NCBI RefSeq assembly: GCF_018598185.1
Contig: NZ_JAHESC010000050.1
Span: 1 to 56,957 of the forward strand
Length of the DNA: 56,957 bases
Origin: Dawidia soli
GTDB lineage: Bacteria > Bacteroidota > Bacteroidia > Cytophagales > Cyclobacteriaceae
Direction of reading: 5' to 3'
The stretch's first letter is position 1. Each line of letters opens with the position of its first letter. The notes beneath the pieces were generated by a model. The model was not told where the DNA came from and did not search any database. It saw nothing but the letters and a program-made list of their open reading frames with translations. This document shows positions 26,562-46,645 of the stretch, in pieces. Both the position numbers and the translations under genes were made by a program.

Positions 26562-26621
26562 CTTATTTTTAACGAATCAGGATTTCCCTCATGTAAGTAA
26601 TGGCAATAAGATGCACTTTTG
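26562..26621 (+). promoter_or_regulatory. Shared operator/promoter, copy 1 (before the PAS-HisKA gene)
   Basis: CTTAT (26562-26566), N10, TCAG (26577-26580), N7, CTCAT (26588-26592), N24, TTTTG (26617-26621). Spacing is identical to the copies before the HPt operon and the secreted-protein genes. Each CTGAT box differs by one base, so this is the weakest copy. Confidence 0.55.
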
Positions 26622-26650
26622 TTCGGGCTAGCCTCTAATAATGAATATTT

Positions 26651-27400
26651 ATGCAGATTCGATCAACTGATCTATTTGTATCAGGTAAACTGATGGAAAA
26701 TATCATCTCCCTTTTGGTGGATGGGTTGCTTGTTCTCAACGCCGACAATTGTATCGAAATCGGTAATGACATATCCTTAAAAATGCTTGGTTTTTCGACA
26801 CCGTCAGAAATAAAGGGAAAACATATAACGAGCCTTTATGCATATCCGGGAAACGCGGAGAAAATAATCCGGTTAATGGGAATGAATAGTCATTTGTACA
26901 ATTGTGAGGATACGTTCATAACACCATACGGGCAAAGTTTTCTCTGCTCGTACTCTTGTTTGCAATTCCGGAATCCGGACGGGGTTACGTTCTCTAAAAT
27001 TATCCTCCTTCGTGATTTGACCGATAAAATGATTGCTGAACAGAAAATCTCCGTGTACACGAAGCGTCTTAACGCCAGTACGGATCAATTAAAGTATCTT
27101 GCATCTCACGAGCTTACGGCTCCTCTACAGGCTATCTATAATCTTATCCTTTGGCTACAGGAAGATACCCGGCCGTCTTTATCCGAAGAAAATATCAATA
27201 TCCATATCGTGAAAGATCGGGTGACCCGATTCGGGTTCCTGATAAATGATCTCCTGAAATATTCAACGGTAGGGCAATCGGGACTCAATACCAGCGCTGT
27301 GGATCTTTATACGATCGTTACGGATGTTACGGAAATGCTCAGTGATTATCTCGTCGGAAGCGGCATGCCATCGTCGAATAGCCACGCTGCGAGGTATTGA
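26651..27400 (+). CDS. PAS histidine kinase-like protein lacking the ATPase domain
   Basis: 249 residues. A PAS domain covers ~10-125 (MENIISLLVDGLLVLNADNC…EIGNDISLKMLGFSTPSEI). A HisKA dimerization helix pair follows, with the phosphoacceptor H153 (LKYLASHELTAPLQAIYNL). The protein ends soon after (…MLSDYLVGSGMPSSNSHAARY) where an HATPase_c domain should begin, and no ATPase motif occurs in any frame of the next 430 nt. It is either a truncated kinase (pseudogene) or a dedicated phospho-transfer and sensing partner for another kinase. The gene has its own copy of the shared operator. Confidence 0.8.
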   Translation: MQIRSTDLFVSGKLMENIISLLVDGLLVLNADNCIEIGNDISLKMLGFSTPSEIKGKHITSLYAYPGNAEKIIRLMGMNSHLYNCEDTFITPYGQSFLCSYSCLQFRNPDGVTFSKIILLRDLTDKMIAEQKISVYTKRLNASTDQLKYLASHELTAPLQAIYNLILWLQEDTRPSLSEENINIHIVKDRVTRFGFLINDLLKYSTVGQSGLNTSAVDLYTIVTDVTEMLSDYLVGSGMPSSNSHAARY

Positions 27401-28080
27401 GATTCCTATACGCCATCCTTTCTTTCGCGAATCGTTTTCAAACACTTACTGAGGATTATCTCATTTGTGCACTTCTTTACACACCTGCACAACGCACCGC
27501 CGCGGCGTGTACCATGATGTTGAATAAGTGTTAACGTTACAACGATGTTATGCGATCATATTCAATGTTTTACGGATTTCCATTCTATAAGTGTTTAAAC
27601 GACGTTGTGGAATGTCATGTGGTGTGTATCATTTATTAGCTGTTATAATAGAGCAGGCGCAGTAGCGATATAGTGGTGGAATTCAGTCAGCCTTTTTGCG
27701 GCGCCTTGCAAAAAGGGTACAGTTTACTTATCTTCAATAGGATGATCTTCAATACGTAGAAAGTGTTGAACGCTTGATCCTGCATCAAGCCGCTTTAGGC
27801 CAATAAATTTTTGGATGTTATCTAAACGTTATTATGATTGGTAATCGCGAGAAACGGTTTTTTAGAAAACTTCTTTTGGAAGGATTGGCTGCAGACGCTG
27901 CGTTAGAGAAAAATAAAATGCGCGGGGTTGATCATCTGTCTGATTTTTCGGACGGGAACCAGTCTTTTTACCTGCGCTCCATGAATTCGATGGCGATATT
28001 GTGCCGTCAGGCTATTCATTGCTGTATATGCTTTTGCTATGCTTTTATTCATAATGTGAGCAGATCAAAAAAGACGTTTT
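27401..28080. other. Gene-free stretch with hairpins
   Basis: There is no convincing gene in 680 bp. Hairpins seen are CCTTTTTGC-N8-GCAAAAAGG (27691-27716) and CTTGAT-CCTGC-ATCAAG (27773-27789), and ATCTTCAATA occurs twice near 27730-27754. The 85-codon frame at 27834-28091 has no recognisable domain and overlaps the next kinase start. The stretch may be the debris of a longer sensor gene, since neither neighbouring kinase looks complete. Confidence 0.5.
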
Positions 28081-29253
28081 ATGCAGCTTGATATATCCCA
28101 GCAGAAGGATTTTGAAAGTAAGATCACGGCCATTGCCAGGGAGTTGGCAAGCCTGATCGAAAATGCCAATGTGCCGATCTTTGGCATTGACCGGAACGGA
28201 TCTATCAATGAGTGGAACAGGGTAATATCAGACCTGTCTGGAATTGCGAAATCTGACCTGCTGGGCAAACGTTGGATCGATCAGCTGGTAGGGATCGAGA
28301 ACCGGCGACCGACCGAATACATGATTGACTGTGTGCTGCGGGGTGATGCCGTCAGTAATTTTGAATTGCCAATATTCACAAAAAATGACAAAAGAATTGT
28401 GCTATTGCTAAGCGCCTTTCCGAGAAGAGATGTCGAAAAAATAATCAACGGAGCCATTTTTGTAGCGCAGGATATTACCGAGCTCATAGAATACCGGCGA
28501 AACCTCGAGAAGATGGTGCAAGATCGGACACGTGAGCTGAACCAGGCGTTGCAAAAGGAAAAGGAGCTGGTCAATATGAAGAGTAAGTTCGTCTCCATCG
28601 CTTCCCACGAGTTCCGTACACCGTTAACAACGATCACGTTAGCCGCCGAGTTTATCAAGAAATTCAGGCAGGATGTGTCGCCTACGGAAATTGATCAGAA
28701 ACTTATCCAAATTGAGAAACAAGTTGCCCACATGACGCATTTACTCGATGATGTATTGACGATCGGAAAGATTGAAGGTGAAAAAATACCCGTCCGGTTA
28801 TGCAGGGTCGATATCCGCGATTTTTTCCGGCGGTTAAGTCAGGAGATTGAACAAAATACAGGTGGAACACATAAGATCAGGCTGGTATATAATCTGCAAT
28901 TCGATACGATCGAGTCTGATGAGAAGCTGCTGAGAAATATCGTGATCAATACGTTGACAAATGCTATTAAATTTTCTTCGGGTGCGGAATCTATTGATGT
29001 CAAGCTCGCTTGTGATATCGAAAAATTTACACTGAGGGTCCGTGATTACGGAATCGGAATTCCGGATGTGGATATGAAGCAGCTTTTCGAACCGTTTTAC
29101 CGGGGGACCAATGTGAGAACCATTCAAGGTACCGGGTTAGGATTGTCTATAGTAAAGAAGGCGGTGGAATTGCTTCGTGGTTGTGTTGATGTAAAAAGTG
29201 AAGTTGGAAAAGGCACTGAGCTCATCGTAACCTTGCCGCGCGTACAAGAATAG
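28081..29253 (+). CDS. PAS histidine kinase
   Basis: 390 residues: PAS at ~20-140 (ANVPIFGIDRNGSINEWNRV), HisKA with H176 (SIASHEFRTPLTTITL) and HATPase_c at ~275-385 (N-box NTLTNAIKFSS, G1 RDYGIGIP, F-box LFEPFYR, G2 GTGLGLSIVKKAV). All catalytic boxes are intact. The N-terminus (MQLDISQQKDFESK) reads like the end of a PAC motif, so one or more upstream PAS domains have probably been lost; the frame closes 7 codons before the ATG. There are no membrane segments, so it is a cytoplasmic sensor. The NarL-type regulator follows 126 nt later and is its likely partner. Confidence 0.88.
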   Translation: MQLDISQQKDFESKITAIARELASLIENANVPIFGIDRNGSINEWNRVISDLSGIAKSDLLGKRWIDQLVGIENRRPTEYMIDCVLRGDAVSNFELPIFTKNDKRIVLLLSAFPRRDVEKIINGAIFVAQDITELIEYRRNLEKMVQDRTRELNQALQKEKELVNMKSKFVSIASHEFRTPLTTITLAAEFIKKFRQDVSPTEIDQKLIQIEKQVAHMTHLLDDVLTIGKIEGEKIPVRLCRVDIRDFFRRLSQEIEQNTGGTHKIRLVYNLQFDTIESDEKLLRNIVINTLTNAIKFSSGAESIDVKLACDIEKFTLRVRDYGIGIPDVDMKQLFEPFYRGTNVRTIQGTGLGLSIVKKAVELLRGCVDVKSEVGKGTELIVTLPRVQE

Positions 29254-29379
29254 CGTTACACTGACACTATTGGAATCAAACACGGTTATGGGCCGCACAG
29301 CTATAAATTCCACGTGAAATACTTTGCATGCGACGTGGTATTATGGAGGAATGATTTTTTAAGGCAATCCGTTCTGTTA

Positions 29380-30036
29380 ATGCAAAAAAGGATAAAAGTC
29401 GTAATTGTCGATGATCATGGTCTCTTACGACATGGTTTATTATCGCTGTTGAACGCAGCCCCGGATATTGAAGTGCTCGCGAGTATCAGCAGCGGAGAAG
29501 AGGCGATCAATCTGCCGGATTTATTGCAGCCGGATGTTTACCTCATGGATATCGTCATGAAAGGAATGAGCGGTATAGAAGCGACGCGCTGGATCAAGGA
29601 GCAAAACCCGAACGCGAAGGTCATTCTGATATCCAGCGAAGTTAATAAGGATTTCATTACAGCGGGTGTGGAGTCGGGTATAGACGGATATTTGCCGAAG
29701 GATGTCGATCAGGAGCATCTGCTTCATTCGATACGGACCGTTTTTAACGGGGGCAGATATTTTAGCCAGGAGGTTATGTCGCTTGTTTTTGAGGACTTCT
29801 ACCTGAAAAAGACCGAAGGTAAGGGCCTTCCTACCAAAAAATCGAAAGAGCTTACCCGACGGGAGAATGAAGTCCTCGTATTGATCGCGAGCGGAAAGAG
29901 TCTGAAACAAATCGCGGATGAACTTTTCATCAGCATAAAAACGGTGGAGACACATAAGCTTCATATACAGGAAAAGATGGGGTTCTCGAATACGGCTCAA
30001 CTGACGAAGTACGCGATCGATCATAAGCTTATTTAA
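29380..30036 (+). CDS. NarL/FixJ-family response regulator
   Basis: 218 residues from the ATG giving MQKRIKVVIVDDHG. The receiver domain (~4-120) has acidic residues VDDH, phospho-Asp D57 (YLMDIVMKGMSG), and the conserved Ser and Lys (ISSEV, LPKDV). The LuxR HTH (~155-215) reads LTRRENEVLVLIASGKSLKQ, then ISIKTVETHKLHIQEKM. It is a complete phospho-regulated transcription factor, probably activated by the kinase just upstream. It is the best candidate in the block for a DNA-binding output, including the shared operator, but that is inference. It is itself not preceded by a good copy of that operator. Confidence 0.92.
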   Translation: MQKRIKVVIVDDHGLLRHGLLSLLNAAPDIEVLASISSGEEAINLPDLLQPDVYLMDIVMKGMSGIEATRWIKEQNPNAKVILISSEVNKDFITAGVESGIDGYLPKDVDQEHLLHSIRTVFNGGRYFSQEVMSLVFEDFYLKKTEGKGLPTKKSKELTRRENEVLVLIASGKSLKQIADELFISIKTVETHKLHIQEKMGFSNTAQLTKYAIDHKLI

Positions 30037-30192
30037 GCGTCATTCACGCCACGCTCCGATCGTTAGGTTTTTGTGTTCTTTCAACACGTTTTAATGTGCG
30101 CCGCGTATAAAACGTCGTGAATACGCGCTTTGTGTTGTAAACTGTCAAAGTTTATAGTTTTTAAGTTTTTCCGCCGATTGGATTAGTCATTC

Positions 30193-30252
30193 CTGATATT
30201 TCGCAAATCAGTTTTCTCCTGATTTGTGCGATTCCTCAATTGAGGACCTTTG
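30193..30252 (+). promoter_or_regulatory. Shared operator/promoter, copy 2 (before the HPt operon)
   Basis: CTGAT (30193-30197), N10, TCAG (30208-30211), N7, CTGAT (30219-30223), N24, CTTTG (30248-30252, within GACCTTTG, a -7-like element). The boxes are exact. Confidence 0.8.
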
Positions 30253-30274
30253 TGGAACACCGAAACACTTACCC

Positions 30275-30616
30275 ATGATTCCAGATGAAATTTCCGGATC
30301 TTCCGTGTCCAGAAACCTTTTTATTGACTTTGATCTGTACACTGACGGCGATGAAGAGTTTAAAAAAGAGCTGATCGATTCGATGATCGACAATCTTGTA
30401 GAAATGCAACAGGTGTTGCAAGAGGCATCGCGTCGTAATGACACGAAATTTTTTCAGGAAGTATGTCATAAGATCAAGCCTACGCTGGAGATGCTGGCGG
30501 ACGTTGAGCTTCTCGACACTGTGGGGAAGTTGAAAACTGCTGTTACCGACCCCGCAAGCGGTGCTCAATTGAATAGAATATGCAAAGGCATCGTTCAAAG
30601 TCTCAAACAAGCATAG
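30275..30616 (+). CDS. HPt (histidine phosphotransfer) protein
   Basis: 113 residues from the ATG at 30275; an upstream ATG at 30224 lies before the -7 element and is therefore unlikely. It is a four-helix-bundle HPt domain with phospho-accepting H65 in FFQEVCHKIKPTLEML, the usual HPt signature (H-K-x-K-P-x-L). It would shuttle phosphate between receiver domains of the hybrid kinases encoded downstream in the same operon and a final response regulator. Confidence 0.88.
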   Translation: MIPDEISGSSVSRNLFIDFDLYTDGDEEFKKELIDSMIDNLVEMQQVLQEASRRNDTKFFQEVCHKIKPTLEMLADVELLDTVGKLKTAVTDPASGAQLNRICKGIVQSLKQA

Positions 30617-30668
30617 CCGTAGCCGCCCTTAAAACATTTGTACAGAGGACGACAGTATTTGTATATAT

Positions 30669-31217
30669 ATGGAAGATGAGGTACTCGATAAAATTGATAT
30701 TTTTCTTACCGTTGACAGACAAACAATCAATAGTTATTTCAATGTCCATGATCCCGCTCCAATTTATAAGCGTCAGTTAAGTCATCAGTTGGAGGAGTAT
30801 ATCAAAACGTGTGTAATTCCGGCAAAACGCTATACGGCCATATTTTACAAGTTTACGTGCACCAGCGAAGTTGACAAGCAGTTTGCGATGCCCCTGATGT
30901 ATGCCATCCGGCGGCACTATCTGCAAAAGAAAAAACTGCGGGAGAAGGAGTTCAATAAATTCAAAAGCCGCAGCTGGTTGCTGCTTTTCATCAGCCTGGT
31001 GGTCGTGCTTATATGCCAGGGGCTCGTACCGCTTGTGTTGGATGCGGAGAACCATTTTCATACGGCTTTTGGTAATAGCCTGGATATTTTTAGCTGGGTG
31101 CTTTTATGGCGTCCGATCGATGTGCTTTTGTTCTATTGGAACCCACACCTGAAGGATATTTTGCTTTTGAACAAACTATCCACATCCGAGCTAATAATCA
31201 TTGAAAATGAAAAATAA
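30669..31217 (+). CDS. Hypothetical membrane protein with two helices
   Basis: 182 residues. The N-terminal ~95 are soluble (…DKIDIFLTVDRQTINSYFNV…QLSHQLEEYIKTCV…), followed by a basic linker and two hydrophobic segments (~104-124 and ~140-157). A short tail comes last (…HLKDILLLNKLSTSELIIIENEK). Related proteins appear as unnamed Bacteroidota membrane proteins. The stop overlaps the start of the next gene by 11 nt, so it is part of the HPt-hybrid kinase operon. Function unknown. Confidence 0.75.
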   Translation: MEDEVLDKIDIFLTVDRQTINSYFNVHDPAPIYKRQLSHQLEEYIKTCVIPAKRYTAIFYKFTCTSEVDKQFAMPLMYAIRRHYLQKKKLREKEFNKFKSRSWLLLFISLVVVLICQGLVPLVLDAENHFHTAFGNSLDIFSWVLLWRPIDVLLFYWNPHLKDILLLNKLSTSELIIIENEK

Positions 31218-31836
31218 AGTGTTGCTTGTGGCCGCTTTAATTTTTTCGCAATTGATACACTCATTTGCCCAGACCGGGCTTGAGCAATATTATTATTGGA
31301 AGGACAAGAACACAACGACCTTTATGCCCGTTATCCATTTTCAGAATGCGAAAAACTGGTACGCCGAGGCACGCTTTAATTACGAGGAGATCAATACGTA
31401 CTCGCTCAATGTCGGGCGCACGTTTGAGCGGGAGAATAAACTCGGTTCGTACACCCTTACGCCGATCGTGGGTGTGGTGTCGGGGGAGCTGAAAGGGGGT
31501 ACGTTGGGCTTTCTCACGACGGGTGAATTCCGGGAGTGGTTTTTTTCTTCCCAATCTCAATGCACGCTATCGAGCCAAACCCGTGATGCGAGCTTTCTGT
31601 TTTGCTGGGCGGAGCTGGGGTATATGCCTGTACGTTGGTTCTATTTCGGATCCAGCTTGCAGCTTACACGGTTCACGCATCATGGCGATACCGTAGCGGA
31701 CCCCGGTGCGTTTATCGGCTTTGAATCCGGAAATTGGACATTTCCTATTTACGGCTTCAATCTTCAGAATGCAGGACGGTATTTTCTGGTAGGTGTCAAT
31801 TTTACAATAGAACGAAAAAAAACAGGCGATTTGTGA
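31207..31836 (+). CDS. Outer-membrane beta-barrel protein
   Basis: 209 residues with a signal peptide (MKNKVLLVAALIFSQLIHSFAQ) and about ten amphipathic strands rich in Tyr, Trp and Phe (NWYAEARFNYEEINTYSLNVG, GTLGFLTTGEFREWFF, RWFYFGSSLQLTRFTHH) ending in YFLVGVNFTIERKK. It is probably a small outer-membrane barrel, used as porin, anchor or sensor partner. It overlaps both neighbours (start inside the previous gene; stop TGA shares a base with the next ATG), so all are co-translated. Confidence 0.75.
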   Translation: MKNKVLLVAALIFSQLIHSFAQTGLEQYYYWKDKNTTTFMPVIHFQNAKNWYAEARFNYEEINTYSLNVGRTFERENKLGSYTLTPIVGVVSGELKGGTLGFLTTGEFREWFFSSQSQCTLSSQTRDASFLFCWAELGYMPVRWFYFGSSLQLTRFTHHGDTVADPGAFIGFESGNWTFPIYGFNLQNAGRYFLVGVNFTIERKKTGDL

Positions 31837-33604
31837 TGGCGGTGTATACTTTCCCAACGGCAATGGAGGCGTTTATGGTGTTACCGCTGTGGGCGAAAGT
31901 GACGACCATAATCGTGGTGGTGTTTTCCGTTTTATTGTATTTCTGGAGAAGGATAAAACTGCTGACCCATGAGAAAATGGAACTGCAGCGCTTCGTCGTG
32001 GAAAAGAACGAGCTTTGGACCTATGCTGTTGAACGGGAGAAAAAGGCGCTCGAAAAAGCGTCGGAGATCGACGCCGCAAAGAAGAAGTTGCTTTCGACGA
32101 TAAATCACCAGATCCGGACGCCTATGAACGGCGTTATCGGGATGGTGACATTGCTTTCAGAGACGCCACTTACATCCGAACAGGTCGAGTATAACGAGAC
32201 GATCCGAAGCTGTAGTGAAAATCTCCTAACGGTCATCAACGATATCCTGTTGAGCGACGTGCTGGCATATTCGAAGGTCGAGTCTAACTCGGATGAGTTT
32301 TCCAACAGGGATTTTAATCTTCGGAATGCCATCGAGGAGGTCTTCGATGTATTTGCCAGTCAGGCCGCGCAGAAGGATGTGGAACTGATCTATCACCTGG
32401 ACAATAAGATTCCCGCGCATGTGGTAGGGGATGACGGGCGGTTAAGGCAGGTACTCATGAATCTGCTGGAGAATTCCATTAAATTCACCGATCGCGGTGA
32501 AATATATATCAAAGTGTGGACTCGGAACAAAGAGGCCGAGATACTGGACCTTGGCTTTGAAGTTCGTGATTCCGGAATCGGCATTCCTCCCAACGAGGTT
32601 AAATTCTTAATGCATTCCATTTCGCAAGCCGGCGCACAACGAACCGGCGTCGGGCTGTTCCTCTGCAACCGGCTGGTCAACATCATGGGTGGCTCGTTGT
32701 CAATCGACAGCCGGGTCAACGAGGGGACTGTGGTCCGGTTCAATATCCTGGTGAGTAGCAGTATGGAGCCTCAGCGAGCGCATGTAGAGATGATGGGTGT
32801 GGAGGGCAAAAAGGTATTGATCGTAGAAGATAACCGGCCGCTGAGAAACGTTCTTGAGCAGGAATTATTAAACTGGAAGCTTGTTCCGGTGCTGGCGGAA
32901 TCCGGTGCGCAGGCGCTGGAGATCTTATCGGAGAAGCGCGGGATCGATCTGGTGCTGGCCGAAATGCAAATGCCCGAAATGGATGGTATGCAGTTGTCGC
33001 AAGCCATCAAGACGCTTTACCCGGCCATGCCCATTATCCTGATCAGTGCCGTAAATGATGAAGGCAGCAAGCAGCATCCGGAGATCCTGAGCTCCCTGGT
33101 ACCGAAGCCGATTCGTCACAATATTCTCGCCCAGCACCTTCTTACCGGGCTCATTCATGAAAGCCAGATCGCCGGTATAGAGAAGGCGATCGTAAAACAG
33201 AAATTATCCAGTGACTTTGCTGTAAAATATCCGCTGACCATACTCATCGCCGAAGACAACGTGGTGAACCAGAAACTGGCGCTTCGGGTACTTGGAAAAC
33301 TCGGTTATAAACCCCATACGGTCATGAACGGCAAGGAGGTATTGGAGGAAGTGACCCGTGTGGAGTACGATGTCATCCTGATGGATATCCAGATGCCCGA
33401 GATGGATGGGCTGGAAGCGACACGCATGATCCGGCTGTGCCTCGCCAATCAGCCGATCATTATCGCGATGACGGCGAATGCCATGCAGGGCGATCGCGAA
33501 GAGTGTATCAATGCGGGAATGGACGACTATATCAGTAAACCCGTGAACATCGAGGAACTGGTTATTATATTGGAAAAATGGGCGCTCCAGGTAAAGGCAA
33601 AAAA

Positions 33605-33608
<4 letters not shown>
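31836..33608 (+). CDS. Hybrid histidine kinase with one altered receiver domain
   Basis: 590 residues: a membrane segment (~14-34), a coiled coil, HisKA with H91 ([17 protein letters not shown]), HATPase_c, and two receiver domains (~325-440 and ~465-585). Receiver 1 has Glu (E376, [13 protein letters not shown]) where phospho-Asp is expected; receiver 2 is standard (D517, [13 protein letters not shown]). The ATPase lid is also shortened ([16 protein letters not shown]) compared with the paralogue encoded next, though G1 (DSGIGIP) is kept. Kinase activity may be weak or absent, with receiver 1 as a fixed phospho-mimic. The start codon overlaps the preceding stop. Confidence 0.88.
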
Positions 33609-37873
<4,265 letters not shown>

Positions 37874-37993
37874 GAGCGTTTGTTGTGACAACGATTATCA
37901 TACAGGTGGCTCAAACACCTTTCTATAACGGCGCCGTAAAATGTTTCATGTCAAAGATAACCTGGTGTATATTTTACAGTATACCAGGCGCGC

Positions 37994-38053
37994 CTGATTT
38001 TTTCCGAGTCAGTTTTTTGCTGATTTTTTTTGTGACGTGTTTCCTCATCTTTG
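37994..38053 (+). promoter_or_regulatory. Shared operator/promoter, copy 3 (before the first fibre-like gene)
   Basis: CTGAT (37994-37998), N10, TCAG (38009-38012), N7, CTGAT (38020-38024), N24, CTTTG (38049-38053). Exact boxes and spacing; T-runs fill much of the spacers. The coding start follows 30 nt later. Confidence 0.8.
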
Positions 38054-38083
38054 TACAAAGCCTTCTGGCAAAAGTTACGACAT

Positions 38084-39958
38084 ATGAAGAGGATTTTAAT
38101 CGTGTTGATCACGCTCTTGATGATCAACTTTTCTCGCGCACAAAATATAGGTATCAATGCAACGGGAGCGGCGCCGGACGCGTCGGCCATTCTTGACGTT
38201 GCCTCTACCAGTAAAGGTCTTCTGGCTCCTCGCGTGGCGCTGACAGCTACCAATGCCGCCGGCCCCATCACGTCACCCGCCACCAGCTTATTAGTGTACA
38301 ACACGGCAACCGCGGGCAGCTCGCCGAACAACGTGGTGCCCGGATACTATTACTGGAACGGTGCAGCGTGGGCCGTTTTTTCAACGACGAGTAATACGGC
38401 GTGGACGCTGACCGGGAATTCGGGGTTAAACCCAGCTACCCACTTTATCGGAACAACCGACGATAAGGCGCTTATCTTTAAATCATTTAACAACCCCTTC
38501 CTGGAATTTGGGCGGCGGGGGACGCTGGGATTAACGCAGGCATATCCGGACTATACGGATGCAACCGAGAAAGTAACTTACGTGCGGTCAGCCCTGCAGT
38601 TCGAAGCTCCCGCGGCTAACTTCTATAAACCTAAAATGTTCACGGACACCGATGGAAATTTCAGGGTCAAGGGAAGCTCTGCCGGCACGGATTTCTTTGA
38701 GTTCGGATCTACCGGAAGCAGCAACGACGGAGGTTTTGAATTCATCATTGGCGACGACGGCGACGAGCCGATGGTATTTAAAAGCTATCACGCAGTCAAC
38801 GGAATGTCGGAGATCATGCGTCTGCAGAGTGGACGAATGGCGGTGGGATCCAACTCTTTTAATGCCACGAATCCCGAGAAACTGTTGATCGATGCCGGCG
38901 CCACGACGTCTTATAACCTGATGACAGGGAAGGGCAGCATTGACAATTACCTTCAGATCAATGTTCAGAATAGTTCTGCCACCGGCAGTGCCAGCTCGGA
39001 TGTCGTTGCCACCTCCAATAATGGAAATGAGTCGATCAACTACATCGACATGGGCATTAACTCGGGCTCCTATACCAACACCAGTCTTCCGGTCCTGGGC
39101 GGCGCCAACACGGCCTATCTTTATACTACCGGAAATGACTTTGTGATCGGTAACGGCACCGCGACAAAGCCTATTCGGTTTTTTACCGGTGGGTTTGCCA
39201 ATACGAACGAACGCATGCGGATCAGCGGTACGGGCGATGTCGCCATTGGTTCGACCACCTTTAACGCGACCAATCCGGAGGCATTCTTAGTGGATGCCGG
39301 TACTACGACCTCGGTCAATGCTATTGTTGGGAGAGGAAGTATCAATAGCTACCTGCAACTTAATATTCAGAACCTTTCCAGTGGGACCAGCTCTTCGTCC
39401 GATGTCGTGGCGACTGCAGACAATGGCAGTGAAACGACCAACTACATCGATATGGGGATCAATGGCAGTACGAATGCGAGTGGCGTCATGGGAGGTCCCA
39501 ACGACGCATACCTTTATAATATCGGGCAGGATCTGCTGATCGGCACGGGTACGGCGGCTAAATCGTTGCTGTTTTTGACGGGTGGCACGTCTGATGTTAC
39601 CAACGAAAGAATGCGGATCAGTGGCACGGGCAATGTGGGCATTGGTACGAATAGCCCCAACTCGACGCTGGAGGTCAATGGGTCCATGGCGCAGGCAATA
39701 ACAGCCACCAGCTCGAATATTACGCTAAATGCAACACACGCTACGGTTATTTTAAACAACGGCGGTACGCCGGCTGTGACATTGCCCGCCGCTGCTGCCA
39801 GCAATGCACGGAGGACCTATATAATCGTGAACCAAACCAGTGGTGCCAGAACGATCAGCAGTTATCGGGATTTCGCGAACGCGGCTGCGACAACCATCGC
39901 TGCCAACAGCAGTATCACGATCCAGTCGGACGGAAGTAACTGGTACCGTGTACATTGA
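38084..39958 (+). CDS. Secreted fibre-like repeat protein A (624 aa)
   Basis: 624 residues with a signal peptide (MKRILIVLITLLMINFSRAQ). An N-terminal segment, ASAILDVASTSKGLLAPRVA, is the usual start of Bacteroidota tail-fibre/S74-like surface proteins. Two internal modules of ~130 residues follow at ~265-400 and ~400-530 (each with FNATNPE, a GSI.(D/S)YLQ(I/L)N.QN segment, YIDMGIN, and NERMRISGTG), then VGIGTNSPNSTLEVNGS and a beta-rich end (…ITIQSDGSNWYRVH). There is no S74 peptidase and no T9SS C-terminal domain. It is probably an extracellular beta-structured fibre. A near-identical-length paralogue lies at 44771. Confidence 0.85.
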   Translation: MKRILIVLITLLMINFSRAQNIGINATGAAPDASAILDVASTSKGLLAPRVALTATNAAGPITSPATSLLVYNTATAGSSPNNVVPGYYYWNGAAWAVFSTTSNTAWTLTGNSGLNPATHFIGTTDDKALIFKSFNNPFLEFGRRGTLGLTQAYPDYTDATEKVTYVRSALQFEAPAANFYKPKMFTDTDGNFRVKGSSAGTDFFEFGSTGSSNDGGFEFIIGDDGDEPMVFKSYHAVNGMSEIMRLQSGRMAVGSNSFNATNPEKLLIDAGATTSYNLMTGKGSIDNYLQINVQNSSATGSASSDVVATSNNGNESINYIDMGINSGSYTNTSLPVLGGANTAYLYTTGNDFVIGNGTATKPIRFFTGGFANTNERMRISGTGDVAIGSTTFNATNPEAFLVDAGTTTSVNAIVGRGSINSYLQLNIQNLSSGTSSSSDVVATADNGSETTNYIDMGINGSTNASGVMGGPNDAYLYNIGQDLLIGTGTAAKSLLFLTGGTSDVTNERMRISGTGNVGIGTNSPNSTLEVNGSMAQAITATSSNITLNATHATVILNNGGTPAVTLPAAAASNARRTYIIVNQTSGARTISSYRDFANAAATTIAANSSITIQSDGSNWYRVH

Positions 39959-39992
39959 TCGGCAGAAGGGTATAGTGCATCAATACTGAAAT

Positions 39993-41201
39993 ATGATCAA
40001 ATTTTATCTTGCGGGTGGCAGATCTTTACTTCTGGGTGTGTGTATAACCCTGGCAAATATCAGCGCATTCTCCCAGGCGCGCTTACTGTTAGACAACGGA
40101 GCTATTATTAACATCACGCAGGGGGCTTATGTAGTGGTTGATAATTCTGCGGCAAACGCCATCACCCGGACCAGCGGTTATATTAAGATGGAGGCTAATA
40201 CATCGAGCCGGCTCAAGTGGAATATCGGCACGAACACCAGTGCGCACGTGTTTCCGTTTGTTACTGCCGCTTCCGTATATATTCCGTTTACATTACAAGT
40301 CACGGCAGGTGACATCGGAAACGTATCGGTTTCTACGTTTCCCACCGCGGCCAATAATACACCTTATCCCACCGGCGTAACGCATGTCGAAATGCTGGGG
40401 GTGGATAACAGCGCGAACGTAGTGGACCGGTTCTGGCAAATAGACAAAGACGGCCCGAGCGGAACGGCCACGTTAACATTCCAGGCAACCCCGGCGGAAG
40501 TAGGCTCTATTACGACGCTGCGCGCGCAACGGTGGAATAGCGGAACCAGTAATTGGGATCAGCCGATCGCCGGTCAGACCAGCGGCGCTTACAGCGTAAC
40601 CGTTCCGGGCGTAACAACTTTTTCCCCCTGGACCCTCTCGGGCAACAATATGCCGCTTCCGGTTGAATTGGTAAGTTTTACGGCAAAGGCCATCGAGAAA
40701 CGTGTCGAGCTTCAATGGATCACCGCTTCGGAGAAGAACAATGATTATTTTACCATTCAGCGAAGTAAAAATGGTACAAATTTTTTCGATATCGCAACCG
40801 TGGCAGCGGGCCCGGCAGGCAGCAGTGTGCAGGAGTACACTTATACAGATTTCGATGCGCTTCCAGGCAAATCGTATTATAGATTAAAGCAAACCGACCT
40901 GGACGGCACCGAGGAGTATTTAGATATCAAGATGGTGCGGATCGAGGAGTTCTATCGGGGGTTAACAGCTTATCCAAATCCGGTAAAAGGAGGTACGTTA
41001 TCCATAGACTTCGGAACCGAACTTGAAGACGATACCTCTGTTGCAATTTCCGACTTGTTAGGGAAAGTTGTGTTTAGTTCCACAGTAGCAGCCGGGACAC
41101 GTTTTTACTCCATCGATCTGAGCCGTTCACCGGCTGGAGCATATCTCCTAAAGACGTTTAATGCCCAGTCCAGCGTTCAACAGATAATTGTGTTGGAGTA
41201 A
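39993..41201 (+). CDS. T9SS-exported surface protein B
   Basis: 402 residues with a signal peptide ending near SAFSQA. A beta-rich domain covers ~30-220 (GTNTSAHVFPF, ANVVDRFWQIDKDGP, FSPWTLSGNN), then a fibronectin-III-like part (PLPVELVSFTAKAIEKRVEL, DYFTIQRSKNG, YYRLKQTDLDG). The last ~80 residues are a type A T9SS sorting domain (YPNPVKGGTLSIDFG, ISDLLGKVVFSS, LSRSPAGAYLLK). The type IX system exports it and links it to the surface. It follows fibre gene A after 34 nt without its own shared operator, so it is in A's operon. Confidence 0.92.
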   Translation: MIKFYLAGGRSLLLGVCITLANISAFSQARLLLDNGAIINITQGAYVVVDNSAANAITRTSGYIKMEANTSSRLKWNIGTNTSAHVFPFVTAASVYIPFTLQVTAGDIGNVSVSTFPTAANNTPYPTGVTHVEMLGVDNSANVVDRFWQIDKDGPSGTATLTFQATPAEVGSITTLRAQRWNSGTSNWDQPIAGQTSGAYSVTVPGVTTFSPWTLSGNNMPLPVELVSFTAKAIEKRVELQWITASEKNNDYFTIQRSKNGTNFFDIATVAAGPAGSSVQEYTYTDFDALPGKSYYRLKQTDLDGTEEYLDIKMVRIEEFYRGLTAYPNPVKGGTLSIDFGTELEDDTSVAISDLLGKVVFSSTVAAGTRFYSIDLSRSPAGAYLLKTFNAQSSVQQIIVLE

Positions 41202-41249
41202 CCAATTGTAAGTGTTATTTGTTCACTTATACACCGGTACTATACGTAC

Positions 41250-41308
41250 CTGATTTTTTAATGTCAGCTTTTCCCTGATTTATCAGACGTGAACGATTCG
41301 GACCTTAG
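41250..41308 (+). promoter_or_regulatory. Shared operator/promoter, copy 4 (before the beta-helix gene)
   Basis: CTGAT (41250-41254), N9, TCAG (41264-41267), N7, CTGAT (41275-41279), N24, CTTAG (41304-41308, in GACCTTAG). One base shorter in the first spacer and one change in the -7 box. Confidence 0.7.
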
Positions 41309-41348
41309 GTGTAATAACTATCAATCCTAATACGTGAAAATCGCCATC

Positions 41349-43121
41349 ATGAAAAGTCAAATTTTTCTTCTGGGTTTATTGATATGTGCGCTTGCGGCGC
41401 AGGTAGAGGCACAGGTTAAAATAGGTGATAATCCCGCAACCATTGATCCCAACTCGCTTCTTGAGCTGGAAAGTACGAATAAAGGATTTTTGCCACCACG
41501 GGTGGCGTTGACGAGTTTAAGCTCGGTGGCGCCATTGACCGGAGCAGTTCCAACCGGGATGCTGGTGTACAGCAGCGGTGGCGTGGTAGCAGATGGATAT
41601 TACTATTGGAATGCGACACAATGGGTCCCTTTTATTTATCAGGGGGAAGCCAGCGTGACGACAAAAACGGCCACGGGCGCGCTCGCAAAGAGCGAAACGT
41701 TCGTCATCGCCAGCAACGATATTACACTCACGTTGCCAGCTATTACGGGGGCGGACGATGGGCTGTCGATGACGATTAAGAATGTGGGAACACATACCGA
41801 CCAGGTTGACGTGGTGCCAAGCGGTTCTTCCACCATTGACGGGACGACGGTCTCTAAACATTTCCGGTGGGTTGCAAAAACCTATGTGGCATCGGGTGGG
41901 GATTGGCTGATCAAAGTAAACGAGGGAAAAGCCGACAACATCTTCGAGGTATCCGAAACGGGCAGCTGGACGACGATCGCGGAAGTGATCGAGTTCCTCG
42001 ATCTGCACATGGTAGAACCTTCCGTGGTGCGATTGGTCGGCGGTGAATATCCCGTGGCAGCGACGCAGACGATCGATTTGCCGTTTCCCCTCACGATCCA
42101 GGGAAGTACGTATGGCGCCGCAACGATTACGGCCGGAGGCGCCTCGGGTACGCTGTTTGACTGTATGACCGAAACCTATTTTAAAATGCTGGCGTTCGAT
42201 GCCGCTGGTGCTTCGGGTGTCGATGCTATACATCTAAACAGTAATAACGAATATTATGAAATAAAAGACTGTACCATCGATGGGTTTGATAAAGGCATAG
42301 TAGCGCTGAGTAACGTGGAAATGTGGGTCTTTGAGCTTGATATTTTGAATGCCACCTCGGCGGGTATAGAAATAGTCTCCGGGGGATTGAGTGGGGTTTC
42401 GCTTAAGATTTCGGAAACGGATTTTCTCAACTGTGAAAAAGGGATCAACCTCCTGTCGGGCACAAATCCGGTGGTGTCCATCCTGAACTGCGGCTTCTAT
42501 AACGATACTGCCGGGCAGATCGGGATAAACTACGTCCCGGCCACGTTTACATCGCTCTCGCGTGTGTTTGTTACCAATAACAGCTGGAACAATACCGGTA
42601 CGTTTATGGAGGGGTTCGATTTTACGCTCGCCTCGGGAAGGGATGCCAATACCTTTATCAAAAACAATTCGGGCGGGCAAGACAGAAATCCGAATAGTCG
42701 TATCAACGTAGCCAACAATTCTGCAACCACCAGCATTACGACGGCGGGAACATGGTATAAAGCCAACTGGACCGCCGGTACGCAGACTTCTATCACTACG
42801 AAATGGACTATCAGCACCAACAGGATCACCTATCAGCCGGTGAACAGAGCCGACGGCTGGGCCGTTATTACGGGTAATTTACAAGTGCCCAGTAACAACC
42901 GGACGATCTCCATTGCCATCGTTAAAAACGGTGTTACGACCACACGATTTGGTGAAACCGATCTTCGTCTGACGACGGCAGGCGACCCGTACCAGTTCGC
43001 CACGACAATCTACCTGACGGGTATCGGGCCGGGCGATTATTTTGAGATCTATTGTACGTCGTCAGTGTCGGGCGAAACAGTGACCTTCCGGGACGTTCAG
43101 TGGTTTACGGAAACCAAATAA
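41349..43121 (+). CDS. Secreted right-handed beta-helix protein C
   Basis: 590 residues from the ATG at 41349; a GTG at 41334 adds five. Signal peptide (MKSQIFLLGLLICALAAQVEAQ), then the same LLELESTNKGFLPPRVALTS introduction as proteins A and A'. A parallel beta-helix region (~205-440) has repeating turns (…EYYEIKDCTIDGFDKGIVALSNVEMWVFELDI… type, spacing ~22-25), resembling pectate-lyase-like right-handed helices. The C-terminal domain (~450-590) is beta-rich. No catalytic set of a known lyase is evident, so a structural or phage-tail-spike-like binding role is likely. It is followed after 24 nt by B'. Confidence 0.75.
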   Translation: MKSQIFLLGLLICALAAQVEAQVKIGDNPATIDPNSLLELESTNKGFLPPRVALTSLSSVAPLTGAVPTGMLVYSSGGVVADGYYYWNATQWVPFIYQGEASVTTKTATGALAKSETFVIASNDITLTLPAITGADDGLSMTIKNVGTHTDQVDVVPSGSSTIDGTTVSKHFRWVAKTYVASGGDWLIKVNEGKADNIFEVSETGSWTTIAEVIEFLDLHMVEPSVVRLVGGEYPVAATQTIDLPFPLTIQGSTYGAATITAGGASGTLFDCMTETYFKMLAFDAAGASGVDAIHLNSNNEYYEIKDCTIDGFDKGIVALSNVEMWVFELDILNATSAGIEIVSGGLSGVSLKISETDFLNCEKGINLLSGTNPVVSILNCGFYNDTAGQIGINYVPATFTSLSRVFVTNNSWNNTGTFMEGFDFTLASGRDANTFIKNNSGGQDRNPNSRINVANNSATTSITTAGTWYKANWTAGTQTSITTKWTISTNRITYQPVNRADGWAVITGNLQVPSNNRTISIAIVKNGVTTTRFGETDLRLTTAGDPYQFATTIYLTGIGPGDYFEIYCTSSVSGETVTFRDVQWFTETK

Positions 43122-43145
43122 GCGGGCCTACTTAATCTGCGTGCG

Positions 43146-44558
43146 ATGAAAAACTTACTGCTGTCGATAGCGTTGTTGACGGTCTGCACCTTTACCGGGG
43201 CGCAGGATCAATTTACCAATACTGGGAACTTTCAAACGTTTTCCGGGGCGACACTCGCCTTTTTTGGCGATTTCGTCAATACGGGAACCTTTACTGATGA
43301 CGCACAATCGATCACGTTCAAAGGTGGTGCCAGTCAATTAATCACCGGTTCTTCCGCGCTTACGTTTAACAACTTCATTGCAGACAATGCCGTCGGCGTA
43401 AGCCTGCAGTCGGATGTCAACGTCACTACTACGCTAACACTTACCGCGGGGAAGCTCGATCTAAATTCCCGGCGGCTGACGATCCTGAGTGCGTTGCCGA
43501 CGGCGGTGGCCCGCACCGGTGGTTATATTTTGAGTGAGAAAACGGATCATACCAGCCAAATGCGATGGGCCATCGGTACCAATACTGCTGCCCACGTCTT
43601 TCCATTTGGTACTTCCTCGGGAGTATATATACCTTGCACCGTGTTGCTGACGGCCGGAGATCTGGGAAACGTAACGGTTTCCTCTTATCCCACGGCGGCG
43701 AACAATATGCCATACCCGACGGCTCCGATTGCGGTTACCGACATGAACCGACAGGGAGTCGACAACAGCGCGAATGTCGTGGACCGGTTCTGGCAGATCG
43801 ATAAGGACGGTCCGGCGGCCACCGTTACGGTGACATTTCAGGCAGGTCCGGCAGAGGTTGGGTCGATCACATCGCTGCAGGCGCAACGATGGAACAGCAC
43901 GACAAGCATTTGGGAAACTCCCCTGCCGGGTCAGACCAGCAACGCCACGAGCGTCACGGTTCCCGATGTAACAGATTTTTCTCCCTGGACCTTGTCCGGA
44001 AACAACTCGCCGCTTCCTGTGGAATTGATCACGTTCACCGCAACGGGCGTCGAGACGCGTGTCGAGGTAAGCTGGATCACAGCAACCGAAAGGAATAACG
44101 ACTATTTCACTGTCCAGCGAAGCAAGGATGGTCACGGTTTTGTGGATATCGGAACAGTGGCCGCGGGTCCGAACGGATATAGCATTCAGGAATATGGCTA
44201 TACCGACTATGACCCCTTTCCGGGCAAGTCGTATTATAGATTAAAGCAGACGGATCTGGATGGCACGGAAGAGTTCTTGGATATTAAAATGGTGCGAATG
44301 GAAGAGCATCTGCCCGGGTTGATGGTCTATCCAAATCCTGTCGAAAATGGTAAATTATCGGTTGACTTCCGGGACGCGCTGACAGACGATGCCCTCGTTA
44401 CGATCTCCGACGTGGTTGGGAAAGTAATATTCCGTTCTGTGGCGACCGCCGGCACACGTTTTTACCCCGTCGATCTGGCGAGCTCCCCGGCGGGTGTATA
44501 CATGCTGCGAATCGCGAACACACAGTCCAGCTTCGAGGTGAAAATTGTTCTAAAGTAG
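43146..44558 (+). CDS. T9SS-exported surface protein B' (paralogue of B)
   Basis: 470 residues, signal peptide MKNLLLSIALLTVCTFTGAQ. From ~residue 120 it aligns closely with protein B at 39993 (GTNTAAHVFPFGT, ANVVDRFWQIDKDGP, FSPWTLSGNNSPLPVELITF, SYYRLKQTDLDGTEEFLDI) through to the type A T9SS sorting domain (VYPNPVENGKLSVDF, ISDVVGKVIF, LASSPAGVYMLR). The N-terminal ~110 residues are a different beta-solenoid-like segment (TNTGNFQTFSGATLAFFGDF…), so the paralogues differ in their exposed end. It is co-transcribed with the beta-helix gene. Confidence 0.92.
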   Translation: MKNLLLSIALLTVCTFTGAQDQFTNTGNFQTFSGATLAFFGDFVNTGTFTDDAQSITFKGGASQLITGSSALTFNNFIADNAVGVSLQSDVNVTTTLTLTAGKLDLNSRRLTILSALPTAVARTGGYILSEKTDHTSQMRWAIGTNTAAHVFPFGTSSGVYIPCTVLLTAGDLGNVTVSSYPTAANNMPYPTAPIAVTDMNRQGVDNSANVVDRFWQIDKDGPAATVTVTFQAGPAEVGSITSLQAQRWNSTTSIWETPLPGQTSNATSVTVPDVTDFSPWTLSGNNSPLPVELITFTATGVETRVEVSWITATERNNDYFTVQRSKDGHGFVDIGTVAAGPNGYSIQEYGYTDYDPFPGKSYYRLKQTDLDGTEEFLDIKMVRMEEHLPGLMVYPNPVENGKLSVDFRDALTDDALVTISDVVGKVIFRSVATAGTRFYPVDLASSPAGVYMLRIANTQSSFEVKIVLK

Positions 44559-44562
44559 CAGC

Positions 44563-44590
44563 CGTTGCCCTTGATCGAACATCGGCAACG
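44563..44590. terminator. Hairpin after B'
   Basis: CGTTGCC and GGCAACG form a 7-bp stem with a 14-nt loop, 5 nt after the stop codon. No U-tract follows, but the position fits a transcript end before the next operator. Confidence 0.5.
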
Positions 44591-44677
44591 TATGGATTGT
44601 GTGATGGTGTTTTATATACGGTTTATGGGCGCGTAATGACATCGGCCTGTTATCTGTAGCGGTTTATCGTGCATCGC

Positions 44678-44737
44678 CTGATTTTTTTCAACTCAGTTTT
44701 TTGCTGATCTTTTTTACCGCACCTTCTTCGACCTTTG
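44678..44737 (+). promoter_or_regulatory. Shared operator/promoter, copy 5 (before the second fibre-like gene)
   Basis: CTGAT (44678-44682), N10, TCAG (44693-44696), N7, CTGAT (44704-44708), N24, CTTTG (44733-44737, in GACCTTTG). Boxes and spacing are exact. Confidence 0.8.
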
Positions 44738-44770: not shown

Positions 44771-46645
44771 ATGAAAAGGATTCTAATCGTATTGATCGCC
44801 CTGATGATAGTCAGGTTTTCCACTGCGCAAAGTGTAGGCATCAATGCGACGGGGGCGGCGCCGAATGCATCGGCTATGCTCGACCTTACTTCTACCAGTA
44901 AAGGCCTCCTTGTGCCCCGCGTGGCATTGACAGCAACCAATGCCGCCGGTCCTGTTGCTTCTCCCGCGACAGGTTTGTTGGTATATAATACTGCGACGGC
45001 GGGCAGCGCGCCGAATAATGTAGTGCCGGGGTACTATTATTGGAATGGTACCTGGTGGGTTGCTTTTTCAGCACCCAGTAGCACAGGCTGGTCGCTTACC
45101 GGAAATTCGGGGTTAAACCAGGCAACCAACTTTGTCGGAACAATCGATGACAAGGCGGTTGTTTTTAAGTCGTTTAACAATTCCTTTCTGGAATTCGGAA
45201 ATCGTGGTACCCTGGGATTAACACAGGTACTTCCAGACTACACAAATGCGACCGAGAAGGTGACCTATGTACGTTCGGCCCTGCAGTTCGAAGCGCCGGC
45301 GGCCAATTCCTATAAACCAAAAATGTTCACGGATGCCGATGGAAATTTCAGGCTGAAGGGAAGCGCTGCCGGTACGGACCTTTTTGAGTTCGGTTCTACC
45401 GGTAGCAGTGACAACGGCGGGTTTGAATTCATCATTGGTGATGAGGGTGACGAGTACTTGTCGTTTAAAAGCTATCACTACATTACCGGCATGTCGGAGA
45501 TCATGCGTTTGCAGAGTGGAAGAATGTCGGTAGGGTCCACATCCTTTAACGCTACCAACCCTGAGAAACTGCTGATCGATGCCGGCGTTACCACGTCTTA
45601 TAACCTGATGACGGGTAAGGGCAGCATCGATAATTATCTTCAGATCAACGTACAGAATAGCGCGGCAACAGGAAGTGCAAGCTCGGATATTGTTGCCACG
45701 GCTAACAACGGAAGCGAGTCGGCCAATTTTATCGATATGGGCATTAACTCGGGCTCGTATACCAACACCGGTCTTCCGGTCCTGGGCGGCGCCAATACGG
45801 CCTATCTCTATGCTACCGGAAATGATTTTGTGATCGGCAACGGGACGGCGACAAAACCCATTCGTTTTTTTGCAGGTGGATTCGCGAGTACGGATGAACG
45901 TATGCGGATCAGTGGCACGGGCGATGTGGCCATCGGTTCAACAACCTTTAACGCGACCTACCCGGAGGCGTTTTTAGTGGATGCCGGTACGACTACCTCT
46001 GTCAATGCTATTGTTGGAAAGGGGAGTATCAATAGCTATCTGCAGCTTAATATTCAGAACCTCTCCAGTGGAACCAGTTCGTCGTCTGATGTCGTGGCGA
46101 CCGCCGATAATGGGAGCGAAACGACCCATTATGTCGATATGGGCATCAACGGCAGTACGAATTCAAGCGGCGTCATGGGAGGGGCCAACGATGCGTATCT
46201 CTATAATATCGGACAGAATTTGCTTATTGCCACGGGCACAGCGTCTAAATCGTTGATCTTTATGACAGGTGGTACTGCTGAGGCTACCAATGAAAGAATG
46301 CGTATCGACGGCACCGGCAACGTGGGGGTTGGCACCAATAGTCCTAACTCGACGCTGGAGGTAAATGGGTCCATCGGGCGGGCGATCACCAGGACCAGCA
46401 CCAACATAACCTTGAACGCGACGCACTATACCGTGATATTGAACAACGGCACTACACCCACTGTCACCCTGCCCGCCGCTGCTGCCAGCAATGCGCGGAG
46501 AATGTATATCATCATGAACCAAACCAATGCCGCGCGAACGATCAGCAGTTATCGTGATTTTACGAATACGGGTGTAACGACCATCGCCGCCAACAGCCGC
46601 ATAACGATCCAGTCGGACGGTACTAACTGGTACCGCATACAATGA
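44771..46645 (+). CDS. Secreted fibre-like repeat protein A' (624 aa, paralogue of A)
   Basis: 624 residues, the same length as protein A and aligned end to end without visible gaps. It has the same signal-peptide type (MKRILIVLIALMIVRFSTAQ), the same two ~130-residue modules and the same end (…ITIQSDGTNWYRIQ). Differences are scattered substitutions, mostly in surface-type positions, so the duplication is not very recent. It has its own copy of the shared operator. Together with A it brackets the B-C-B' genes. It lacks a T9SS domain, so its route to the surface, or assembly with B/B', is open. Confidence 0.88.
   Translation: MKRILIVLIALMIVRFSTAQSVGINATGAAPNASAMLDLTSTSKGLLVPRVALTATNAAGPVASPATGLLVYNTATAGSAPNNVVPGYYYWNGTWWVAFSAPSSTGWSLTGNSGLNQATNFVGTIDDKAVVFKSFNNSFLEFGNRGTLGLTQVLPDYTNATEKVTYVRSALQFEAPAANSYKPKMFTDADGNFRLKGSAAGTDLFEFGSTGSSDNGGFEFIIGDEGDEYLSFKSYHYITGMSEIMRLQSGRMSVGSTSFNATNPEKLLIDAGVTTSYNLMTGKGSIDNYLQINVQNSAATGSASSDIVATANNGSESANFIDMGINSGSYTNTGLPVLGGANTAYLYATGNDFVIGNGTATKPIRFFAGGFASTDERMRISGTGDVAIGSTTFNATYPEAFLVDAGTTTSVNAIVGKGSINSYLQLNIQNLSSGTSSSSDVVATADNGSETTHYVDMGINGSTNSSGVMGGANDAYLYNIGQNLLIATGTASKSLIFMTGGTAEATNERMRIDGTGNVGVGTNSPNSTLEVNGSIGRAITRTSTNITLNATHYTVILNNGTTPTVTLPAAAASNARRMYIIMNQTNAARTISSYRDFTNTGVTTIAANSRITIQSDGTNWYRIQ

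What the first reader, a model, noticed from the sequence alone, without database searches (positions are those of the whole stretch)
26562..44737. One 60-bp operator/promoter architecture before five transcription units
The pattern CTGAT-N10-TCAG-N7-CTGAT-N24-(C)TTTG occurs at 26562, 30193, 37994, 41250 and 44678. Three copies are exact in boxes and spacing, one is exact except for N9 and CTTAG, and one has one mismatch per CTGAT box. They precede the PAS-HisKA gene, the HPt/hybrid-kinase operon, and the three transcription units of secreted proteins. CTGA-N11-TCAG is an inverted repeat, and the third box is 11 bp further on the same face. The -7 boxes deviate from TAnnTTTG in the TA, as expected for activator-dependent promoters. 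I infer a regulon linking the phosphorelay to the surface proteins. I know of no described Bacteroidota operator of this form.
Basis: partly seen in the sequence, partly recalled or inferred. Interest (0 to 1): 0.82.

Follow-up and report, generated by a model that had tools for sequence, protein, structure and literature searches.

The report
Shared operator wiring kinases to surface proteins
Five promoters in this window carry the same binding site, apparently for a neighbouring two-component response regulator, and the site recurs with that regulator in related bacteria in front of signalling and cell-surface genes, so one switch probably controls both.

Summary
In related genomes (Cytophagales, Cyclobacteriaceae/Fulvivirgaceae by record names) the element refines to CCTGATTT-N(4-6)-AAATCAG-N7-CTGAT-N25-TTTG, with an A kept in a (C)AnnTTTG -7 box. 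In the window's 7.5-Mb genome a profile finds eight sites at E<1e-3: five here, two on contig C34, one on C82. Each precedes a signalling or surface gene.

The regulator is very probably the REC-LuxR (NarL/FixJ-type) protein at 29380-30036. Of 44 related loci fetched with that protein family as query, 23 carry the site 43-237 bp after the regulator. In 70 genomes I chose, a site at E<=1e-6 occurs in 26 of 27 with a close ortholog and 2 of 35 without; leaving out genomes that trained the profile, 8 of 9 against 0 of 33. The other candidate, PAS-LuxR at 24503, has no close counterpart in 20 related genomes searched.

The nearest described architecture I found is the multi-half-site operator of ComA of Bacillus subtilis. 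Binding, activation and transcription starts are inferred, not measured.

The parts
26562..26621 (+). operator-promoter copy 1 (two box mismatches), before the PAS-HisKA gene
   Evidence: profile E=1.4e-9 (the site was in the profile)
26651..27400 (+). PAS-HisKA protein without an ATPase domain, target 1
   Evidence: Pfam PAS_9 and weak HisKA; tblastn of two related kinases finds no ATPase part downstream
28081..29253 (+). PAS-HisKA-HATPase sensor kinase, probable partner of the response regulator
   Evidence: related kinases (39-43%) sit before the regulator in L126, L130, L132
29380..30036 (+). REC-LuxR (NarL/FixJ-type) response regulator, proposed to bind the operator
30193..30252 (+). operator-promoter copy 2, before the HPt/hybrid-kinase operon
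   Evidence: exact in all boxes and TTTG; E=1.4e-10 (in the profile)
30275..30616 (+). HPt protein, first gene of target operon 2
   Evidence: HKxK histidine motif kept in 9 of 10 aligned proteins; no Pfam hit of its own
30669..37873 (+). rest of operon 2: two small proteins, HisKA-HATPase-REC-REC kinase, Reg_prop-Y_Y_Y-HisKA-HATPase-REC-REC kinase with no DNA-binding domain found
   Evidence: gene order kept in L041 and L051, and in L052 as far as that stretch reaches
37994..38053 (+). operator-promoter copy 3
   Evidence: E=1.4e-10 (in the profile)
38084..41201 (+). target 3: about 625-aa secreted protein and a Por_Secre_tail protein
   Evidence: start codon 30 bases after TTTG
41250..41308 (+). 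operator-promoter copy 4 (N9 between CTGAT and TCAG, TTAG for TTTG)
   Evidence: E=1.3e-10 (in the profile)
41349..44558 (+). target 4: about 590-aa secreted protein and a Por_Secre_tail protein
   Evidence: start codon 40 bases after the -7 box
44678..44737 (+). operator-promoter copy 5
   Evidence: E=1.1e-9 (in the profile)
44771..46645 (+). target 5: about 624-aa secreted protein
   Evidence: start codon 33 bases after TTTG

Best explanation
The element is the operator and core promoter of a regulon run by the NarL/FixJ-type response regulator at 29380-30036. The phosphorylated regulator (kinase 28081-29253 and probably the HPt/hybrid-kinase relay feeding it) binds an array of CCTGATTT half-sites. 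Two strong half-sites, ATCAG-N7-CTGAT, centre near -42 where the -33 element would lie. One strong half-site (CTGATTT) lies further upstream, with a degenerate fourth. Bound regulator replaces the missing -33 contact and recruits the housekeeping polymerase to a (C)AnnTTTG -7 box. It switches on sensor kinases, the HPt relay and surface or secreted proteins together. Shown here: the element, its spacing, its restriction to these gene classes in this genome, and its linkage and co-occurrence with the regulator. Inferred: binding, activation rather than repression, transcription start, phosphorelay connections.
For: Loci fetched with the regulator family as query: 23 of 44 have the site 43-237 bp after the regulator match, same strand; 36 outgroup regulator loci (360 kb) have one hit. 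Presence-absence: 26 of 27 versus 2 of 35 genomes; out of sample 8 of 9 versus 0 of 33, Fisher p about 8e-8, not corrected for shared ancestry. Spacing N7 is specific: 45 hits at N7 against 2-6 at other values. Positions not used for selection are conserved: TT after box 1, AA before box 2, CA before nnTTTG. Start codons follow closely: median 27.5 bases among the 76 of 90 sites with a gene at most 110 bases away. RNA reading disfavoured: 0 compensatory changes in 329 cells.
Against: No binding, footprint or transcript data. G137 and G368 have sites but no close regulator was found; G368 is 87% complete, G137 is not explained. G084 has the regulator but its best site is weak (E=3e-4). Of 8 genomes with more distant homologs (295-350 bits) only 3 have a site at E<=1e-6. 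In 21 of 44 regulator loci no site lies just downstream. The 70 genomes were picked by hand, and several of the 44 loci belong to genomes first found through the motif. Activation rather than repression rests on geometry alone.
Confidence: 0.8

Rival explanations
1. The PAS-LuxR protein at 24503 binds the operator, alone or together with 29380.
For: It lies in the same cluster and has a GerE-type HTH.
Against: Best counterparts in 20 other genomes searched reach 185 bits or less against 562 for itself; G197, G074, G337 and G293, which have sites, have none better than E about 1e-10. No protein in the neighbourhoods matched it over half its length.
Confidence: 0.06
2. The conserved palindrome acts as RNA: a leader hairpin controlling attenuation or translation.
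For: CTGATTT...AAATCAG could pair, and its loop length varies N8-N10, as RNA loops do.
Against: No compensatory change in 7 pairs over 50 sequences and no excess over shuffles; a third box in direct orientation has no role in a hairpin; the element lies upstream of a conserved (C)AnnTTTG box at a nearly fixed 25 bases; no Rfam match at gathering score in window 24000-47500.
Confidence: 0.04
3. The element is a promoter for an alternative sigma factor, with CTGAT as its -35 element.
For: Box 3 sits at the -33 position with nearly fixed spacing to the -7 box.
Against: Box 3 is the same word as boxes 1 and 2, which lie far upstream; TTTG and the A of TAnnTTTG are kept as in housekeeping promoters; the linked conserved regulator is a response regulator and not a sigma factor.
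Confidence: 0.05
4. The regulator is right but it represses: the site over the -33 region blocks polymerase.
For: Box 3 overlaps the -33 position.
Against: The sites replace a recognisable -33 element and the -7 box usually lacks its T, so the bare promoter should be weak; a nearly fixed 25-base spacing is typical of activators and not needed for blocking (inference).
Confidence: 0.12

Closest known systems
ComA operator of Bacillus subtilis (PMC4797271, passages seen)
   Same: NarL/FixJ-type response regulator (ComA's class recalled); inverted repeat of a short half-site with a 4- or 5-base spacer, plus further half-sites next to a poorly conserved -35 region; [quoted passage not shown]
   Different: half-site CCTGATTT instead of TTGCGG; no conserved second element of a direct repeat downstream of box 3; the degenerate fourth half-site lies upstream instead; Bacteroidota -7 box; targets are kinases, HPt proteins and surface proteins
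VraR (LiaR-type) and NarL response regulators
   Same: closest solved sequences to 29380 (VraR entries 2e-38, NarL 4e-30); REC plus GerE domains
   Different: distant in sequence; operators not compared here
LuxR-type lux box (recalled)
   Same: inverted repeat with CCTG at the outer edge, centred near -42
   Different: 16-base core versus 18-20; acyl-homoserine-lactone regulator, not a response regulator
PorXY-SigP control of type IX secretion in Porphyromonas gingivalis (PMC4800418, PMC5005315; starts of abstracts in a search listing only)
   Same: a two-component system linked to type IX secretion genes
   Different: PMC4800418 describes a cascade through an ECF sigma factor (SigP), not a REC-LuxR regulator

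Membership tests
NarL/FixJ-type response regulator | receiver domain followed by a GerE/LuxR HTH | tested here: met
   Response_reg 88.6 bits and GerE 66.6 bits on the ORF at 29314-30036
NarL/FixJ-type response regulator | conserved phospho-acceptor Asp | tested here: met
   MD with Asp57 invariant in 7 aligned proteins
Regulon with a dedicated operator | site co-occurs with the regulator across genomes | tested here: met
   26 of 27 versus 2 of 35; out of sample 8 of 9 versus 0 of 33, in 70 hand-picked genomes
Regulon with a dedicated operator | sites upstream of genes and not scattered | tested here: met
   eight sites at E<1e-3 in the own genome, each before a signalling or surface gene; the search scored 150 of 1072 candidates of its first look
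Regulon with a dedicated operator | regulator binds the site | not testable with these tools
   needs gel shift or footprint
ComA-type operator | inverted repeat of a short half-site with 4-5 base spacer | tested here: met
   spacing equals N4 or N5 between 7-base half-sites in 69 of 72 non-redundant sites, N6 in 3
ComA-type operator | further half-sites as a direct repeat (N5) at the -35 region | tested here: not met
   one further half-site (box 3) is present; no second direct element is conserved downstream of it
Housekeeping-type Bacteroidota promoter | TAnnTTTG -7 box | tested here: inconclusive
   A kept in 57 of 63, T only in 3 of 63; TTTG itself was part of the selection
cis-acting RNA hairpin | compensatory base changes | tested here: not met
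   0 of 329 cells

The most novel reading that the evidence does not exclude
A family-wide surface-remodelling switch of Cytophagales. One response regulator, reading an operator of up to four half-sites arranged as two tandem ATCAG-N7-CTGAT dimer sites (near -42 and -68), controls the synthesis of its own upstream network: HPt proteins, hybrid kinases without DNA-binding outputs, and PAS kinases with or without an ATPase domain. The same regulator controls type IX-secreted surface proteins and, in some species, PorP/SprF, so that signal capacity and cell surface are rebuilt together by positive feedback.
Probability: 0.4. Interest if true: 0.72.

Novelty: new variant of a known kind. Interest (0 to 1): 0.6.

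Why it matters
Bacteroidota genomes hold many REC-LuxR regulators and hybrid kinases, and to my knowledge few operators are known for them. Here an operator, its regulator and its targets come together with strong comparative support. That makes the output of an HPt-centred phosphorelay, and the control of type IX-secreted surface proteins, directly testable in relatives such as Ohtaekwangia koreensis and Chryseolinea serpens. It would also extend multi-half-site activator operators of the ComA sort to another phylum.

Tried and rejected
One search used a wrong gap (N8 instead of N9 between ATCA and TGAT, and 23-25 instead of 24-26 to TTTG), my error. It hit 30 of 390 genomes, one hit each, and missed the true sites; I kept it as a shifted-spacing control for (67 of 390 genomes, of which only some look like true sites and the rest like coding chance). 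Hits in L058, L059 and L060 are perfect in the boxes but lack the TTTG; dropped. The 54 'family chance loci' gave 25 hits in 163 kb, but many had been picked with nearly the same pattern, so they are no fair background and I did not use them. An RNA structure was tested and rejected. A ComA-like second direct element downstream of box 3 was sought and not found. PAS-LuxR 24503 as the regulator was rejected. Literature searches for the motif letters or for such a regulon listed nothing I judged relevant to this operator among the rows shown; the library holds only open-licence papers and only the top rows of long lists were seen. A search for a LiaR operator paper did not find the one I had in mind. 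I did not run structure prediction or fold search.

Dropped rows and limits: two sites (L046:13975, L207:3984) were left out of the weight matrix (61 of 63); 50 of the 63 sites were put in alignment A2. In one search, 27 of the 31 genomes with a regulator at 350 bits or more were tested (G355, G062, G270, G370 not), and the 35 without were chosen by me. One search scored 7 candidates per genome, one search scored 150 of 1072 and 64 per genome, so weak cases can be missed. The split into training and other genomes was made by hand from contig lengths and coordinates. The 8 of 9 includes near-duplicates G177, G286 and G024; without them it is 5 of 6. The best site among the 33 untrained genomes without the regulator is G020 at 1.8e-5.
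Full report
Check of the finding. All five copies exist at the stated coordinates. Four match CTGAT-N9..11-TCAG-N6..8-CTGAT exactly and 26562 has one mismatch in each CTGAT box. One hundred shuffles of the window gave none. The third box is followed by 25 bases and then TTTG in four copies and TTAG at 41250.

Whole genome. The window is contig C68 of a 7.48-Mb genome in 122 contigs. A sequence-only profile of 50 sites (A2/R1) searched against that genome gives eight non-overlapping sites at E<1e-3: the five here (1.4e-9 to 1.3e-10), C34:273304 (5e-12), C34:265016 (1.5e-6) and C82:19207 (4e-4). The next hits are reverse-strand readings of the C34 sites (0.02, 0.03), then hits from 0.6 up. The five window sites and the two C34 sites were themselves in the profile; the C82 site was not, and it is degenerate in boxes 2 and 3. 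C34:273304 leads an operon of PAS-HisKA-HATPase, PAS-kinase with receivers, HAMP-kinase, single receiver and YfiR/HmsC-like genes, and C34:265016 a TonB-dependent receptor. C82:19207 lies 128 bases after a second REC-LuxR gene of the same clade (299.9 bits) and before a HisKA-HATPase gene. So the sites are not scattered.

Family-wide element. Pattern scans of 245 and 390 genomes of the family, fetched neighbourhoods and the named loci gave 73 sites at up to 2 mismatches in 19 letters, 63 after removing near-duplicates. Positions that took no part in that selection are conserved too, in 61 of those sites: C before box 1 (75%), the two T after box 1 (88%, 99%), the two A before box 2 (82%, 90%), CC before box 3 (65%, 62%), and CA before nnTTTG (67%, 91%). 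Among 72 non-redundant sites of a later weight-matrix scan, box1-box2 spacing is N8 in 33, N9 in 36 and N10 in 3, and the distance to TTTG is 25 in 65, 26 in 6 and 24 in 1.

Spacing controls on 44 regulator loci (514 kb): 45 hits at up to 3 mismatches with N7 (a few places counted twice), against 2, 2, 6, 5, 6 and 2 with N4, N5, N6, N8, N9 and N10. Other distances to TTTG gave 10-19 hits (at up to 2 mismatches, 0-7 against 29) and other first gaps 8-20, including two exact N10 sites. The reversed motif gave 1.

The regulator. In G000, G156, G240, G293, G288, G152 and G173 the gene just upstream of a site encodes a REC-LuxR protein of one clade, 52-55% identical to 29380 (92% in G156), while the other full-length REC-LuxR proteins in the fetched loci, outside this clade, are 30% or less. 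Those genomes were found through the motif, so the reverse test matters. The clade was searched with profile A1 (7 of these proteins) in 390 genomes: 33 hits of 350 bits or more in 31 genomes. Of the 30 loci fetched for that search, 14 carry the site at up to 3 mismatches just after the regulator gene; seven of these were places not seen before. A named collection gave 44 family loci with the same query; 23 of 44 carry the site 43-237 bases after the end of the regulator match, same strand. Several of these 44 belong to genomes already found through the motif (for example L167, L195, L198, L200). Thirty-six outgroup regulator loci (360 kb) gave one hit.

Presence and absence. With the profile, 70 genomes chosen by me were scanned. 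Sites at E<=1e-6 occur in 26 of 27 genomes with a close regulator (G084 fails at 3e-4), in 3 of 8 with a more distant one (295-350 bits), and in 2 of 35 without (G137, G368). Without genomes that supplied training sites the counts are 8 of 9 and 0 of 33; dropping near-duplicates, 5 of 6 and 0 of 33 (Fisher 8e-8 and 1e-5, not corrected for shared ancestry). G127, of the same genus but without the close regulator, has no site better than E=0.09. In an order-wide sample of 241 genomes the clade (E<=1e-80) was found in 4, all of this family; how many of the 241 lie outside the family was not shown. PAS-LuxR 24503 has no close counterpart in 20 other genomes (best 185 bits, 42% identity, against 562 for itself).

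Targets. First genes after the sites include HPt proteins (Pfam Hpt at E=3e-4 and 9e-4 in L170 and L174, both under Pfam's own cut-off; the window's HPt has the HKxK motif kept in 9 of 10 aligned proteins), PAS-HisKA-HATPase kinases, a receiver protein whose tail looks HPt-like to me, a TonB-dependent receptor, PD40 repeat proteins, a Por_Secre_tail protein and PorP/SprF in two genomes (174 and 266 bits). Of the 20 first genes scanned have no Pfam match at 0.01. Seventy-six of 90 distinct sites have a gene of about 100 codons or more starting within 110 bases of TTTG; among those the median leader is 27.5 bases. That figure is bounded by the selection.

How it may work. In Flavobacterium psychrophilum the TAnnTTTG box spans -12 to -5 (PMC9723704, passages). 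Taking that register, box 3 lies at -38 to -34, box 2 at -50 to -46 and box 1 at about -64 to -60. The rigid pair box 2-N7-box 3 is centred at -42, the usual place of an activator that touches sigma (recalled). An ATCAG-like half-site also lies 7 bases before box 1: it is the best of 56 offsets, mean match 2.08 against 1.27 (sd 0.19), with 10 of 63 sites matching at 4 of 5 letters or better. This suggests two tandem dimer sites, the upstream one degenerate. Against this, the stretch between boxes 1 and 2 (TTT...AAA) is the most strongly conserved flank, which would fit a dimer on boxes 1-2. The data do not decide which pair one dimer holds. An RNA hairpin is unlikely: no compensatory changes in 329 cells and no Rfam match at gathering score.

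Comparison. [quoted passage not shown] The present element shares the inverted-repeat spacing, counted with 7-base half-sites, and a further half-site at -35. It lacks a second direct element and differs in half-site, promoter and targets. I therefore say it works like a ComA operator but do not file it as one. Sequence neighbours of the regulator with solved structures are VraR entries and NarL. I found no description of this operator in the rows shown by the searches, which cover only open-licence papers.

Noticed in passing
26651-27400: PAS-HisKA protein that ends before the ATPase domain; the homolog in the sister species (L042:2579-3334, 82% identical) is equally short, so the loss may be old and tolerated, leaving a PAS protein with a possibly phosphorylatable histidine.
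   Followed up: partly
33578-37873; L044:4051-8244; L053:4112-8359: Reg_prop-Y_Y_Y hybrid kinase of about 1400 aa with two receivers and no DNA-binding output found in the window; homologs in G156 and G160 stand directly behind their own copy of the operator.
   Followed up: partly
L129:4075, L171:6827, L173:6827, L197:7071, L208:6817: These five sites have CTGTCGG instead of CTGATTT at box 3, each just behind the regulator gene; perhaps a lineage-specific variant of the promoter-proximal half-site.
   Followed up: no
G137:C28:31347 (L055:7349): Perfect site in a genome scored 100% complete in which no close regulator was found; the next downstream gene on the same strand is about 600 bases away.
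   Followed up: partly
L045-L050, L121-L122 (G240): One genome of another genus has 14 scored sites in the fetched stretches, among them before three paralogous small barrel-like proteins, two paralogous 210-aa secreted proteins and a 2226-aa surface protein, and has two regulators of the clade.
   Followed up: partly
24503-25273: PAS-LuxR protein with no close counterpart in 20 related genomes; a tyrosine recombinase (21994-23376) lies nearby, so it may have been acquired.
   Followed up: partly
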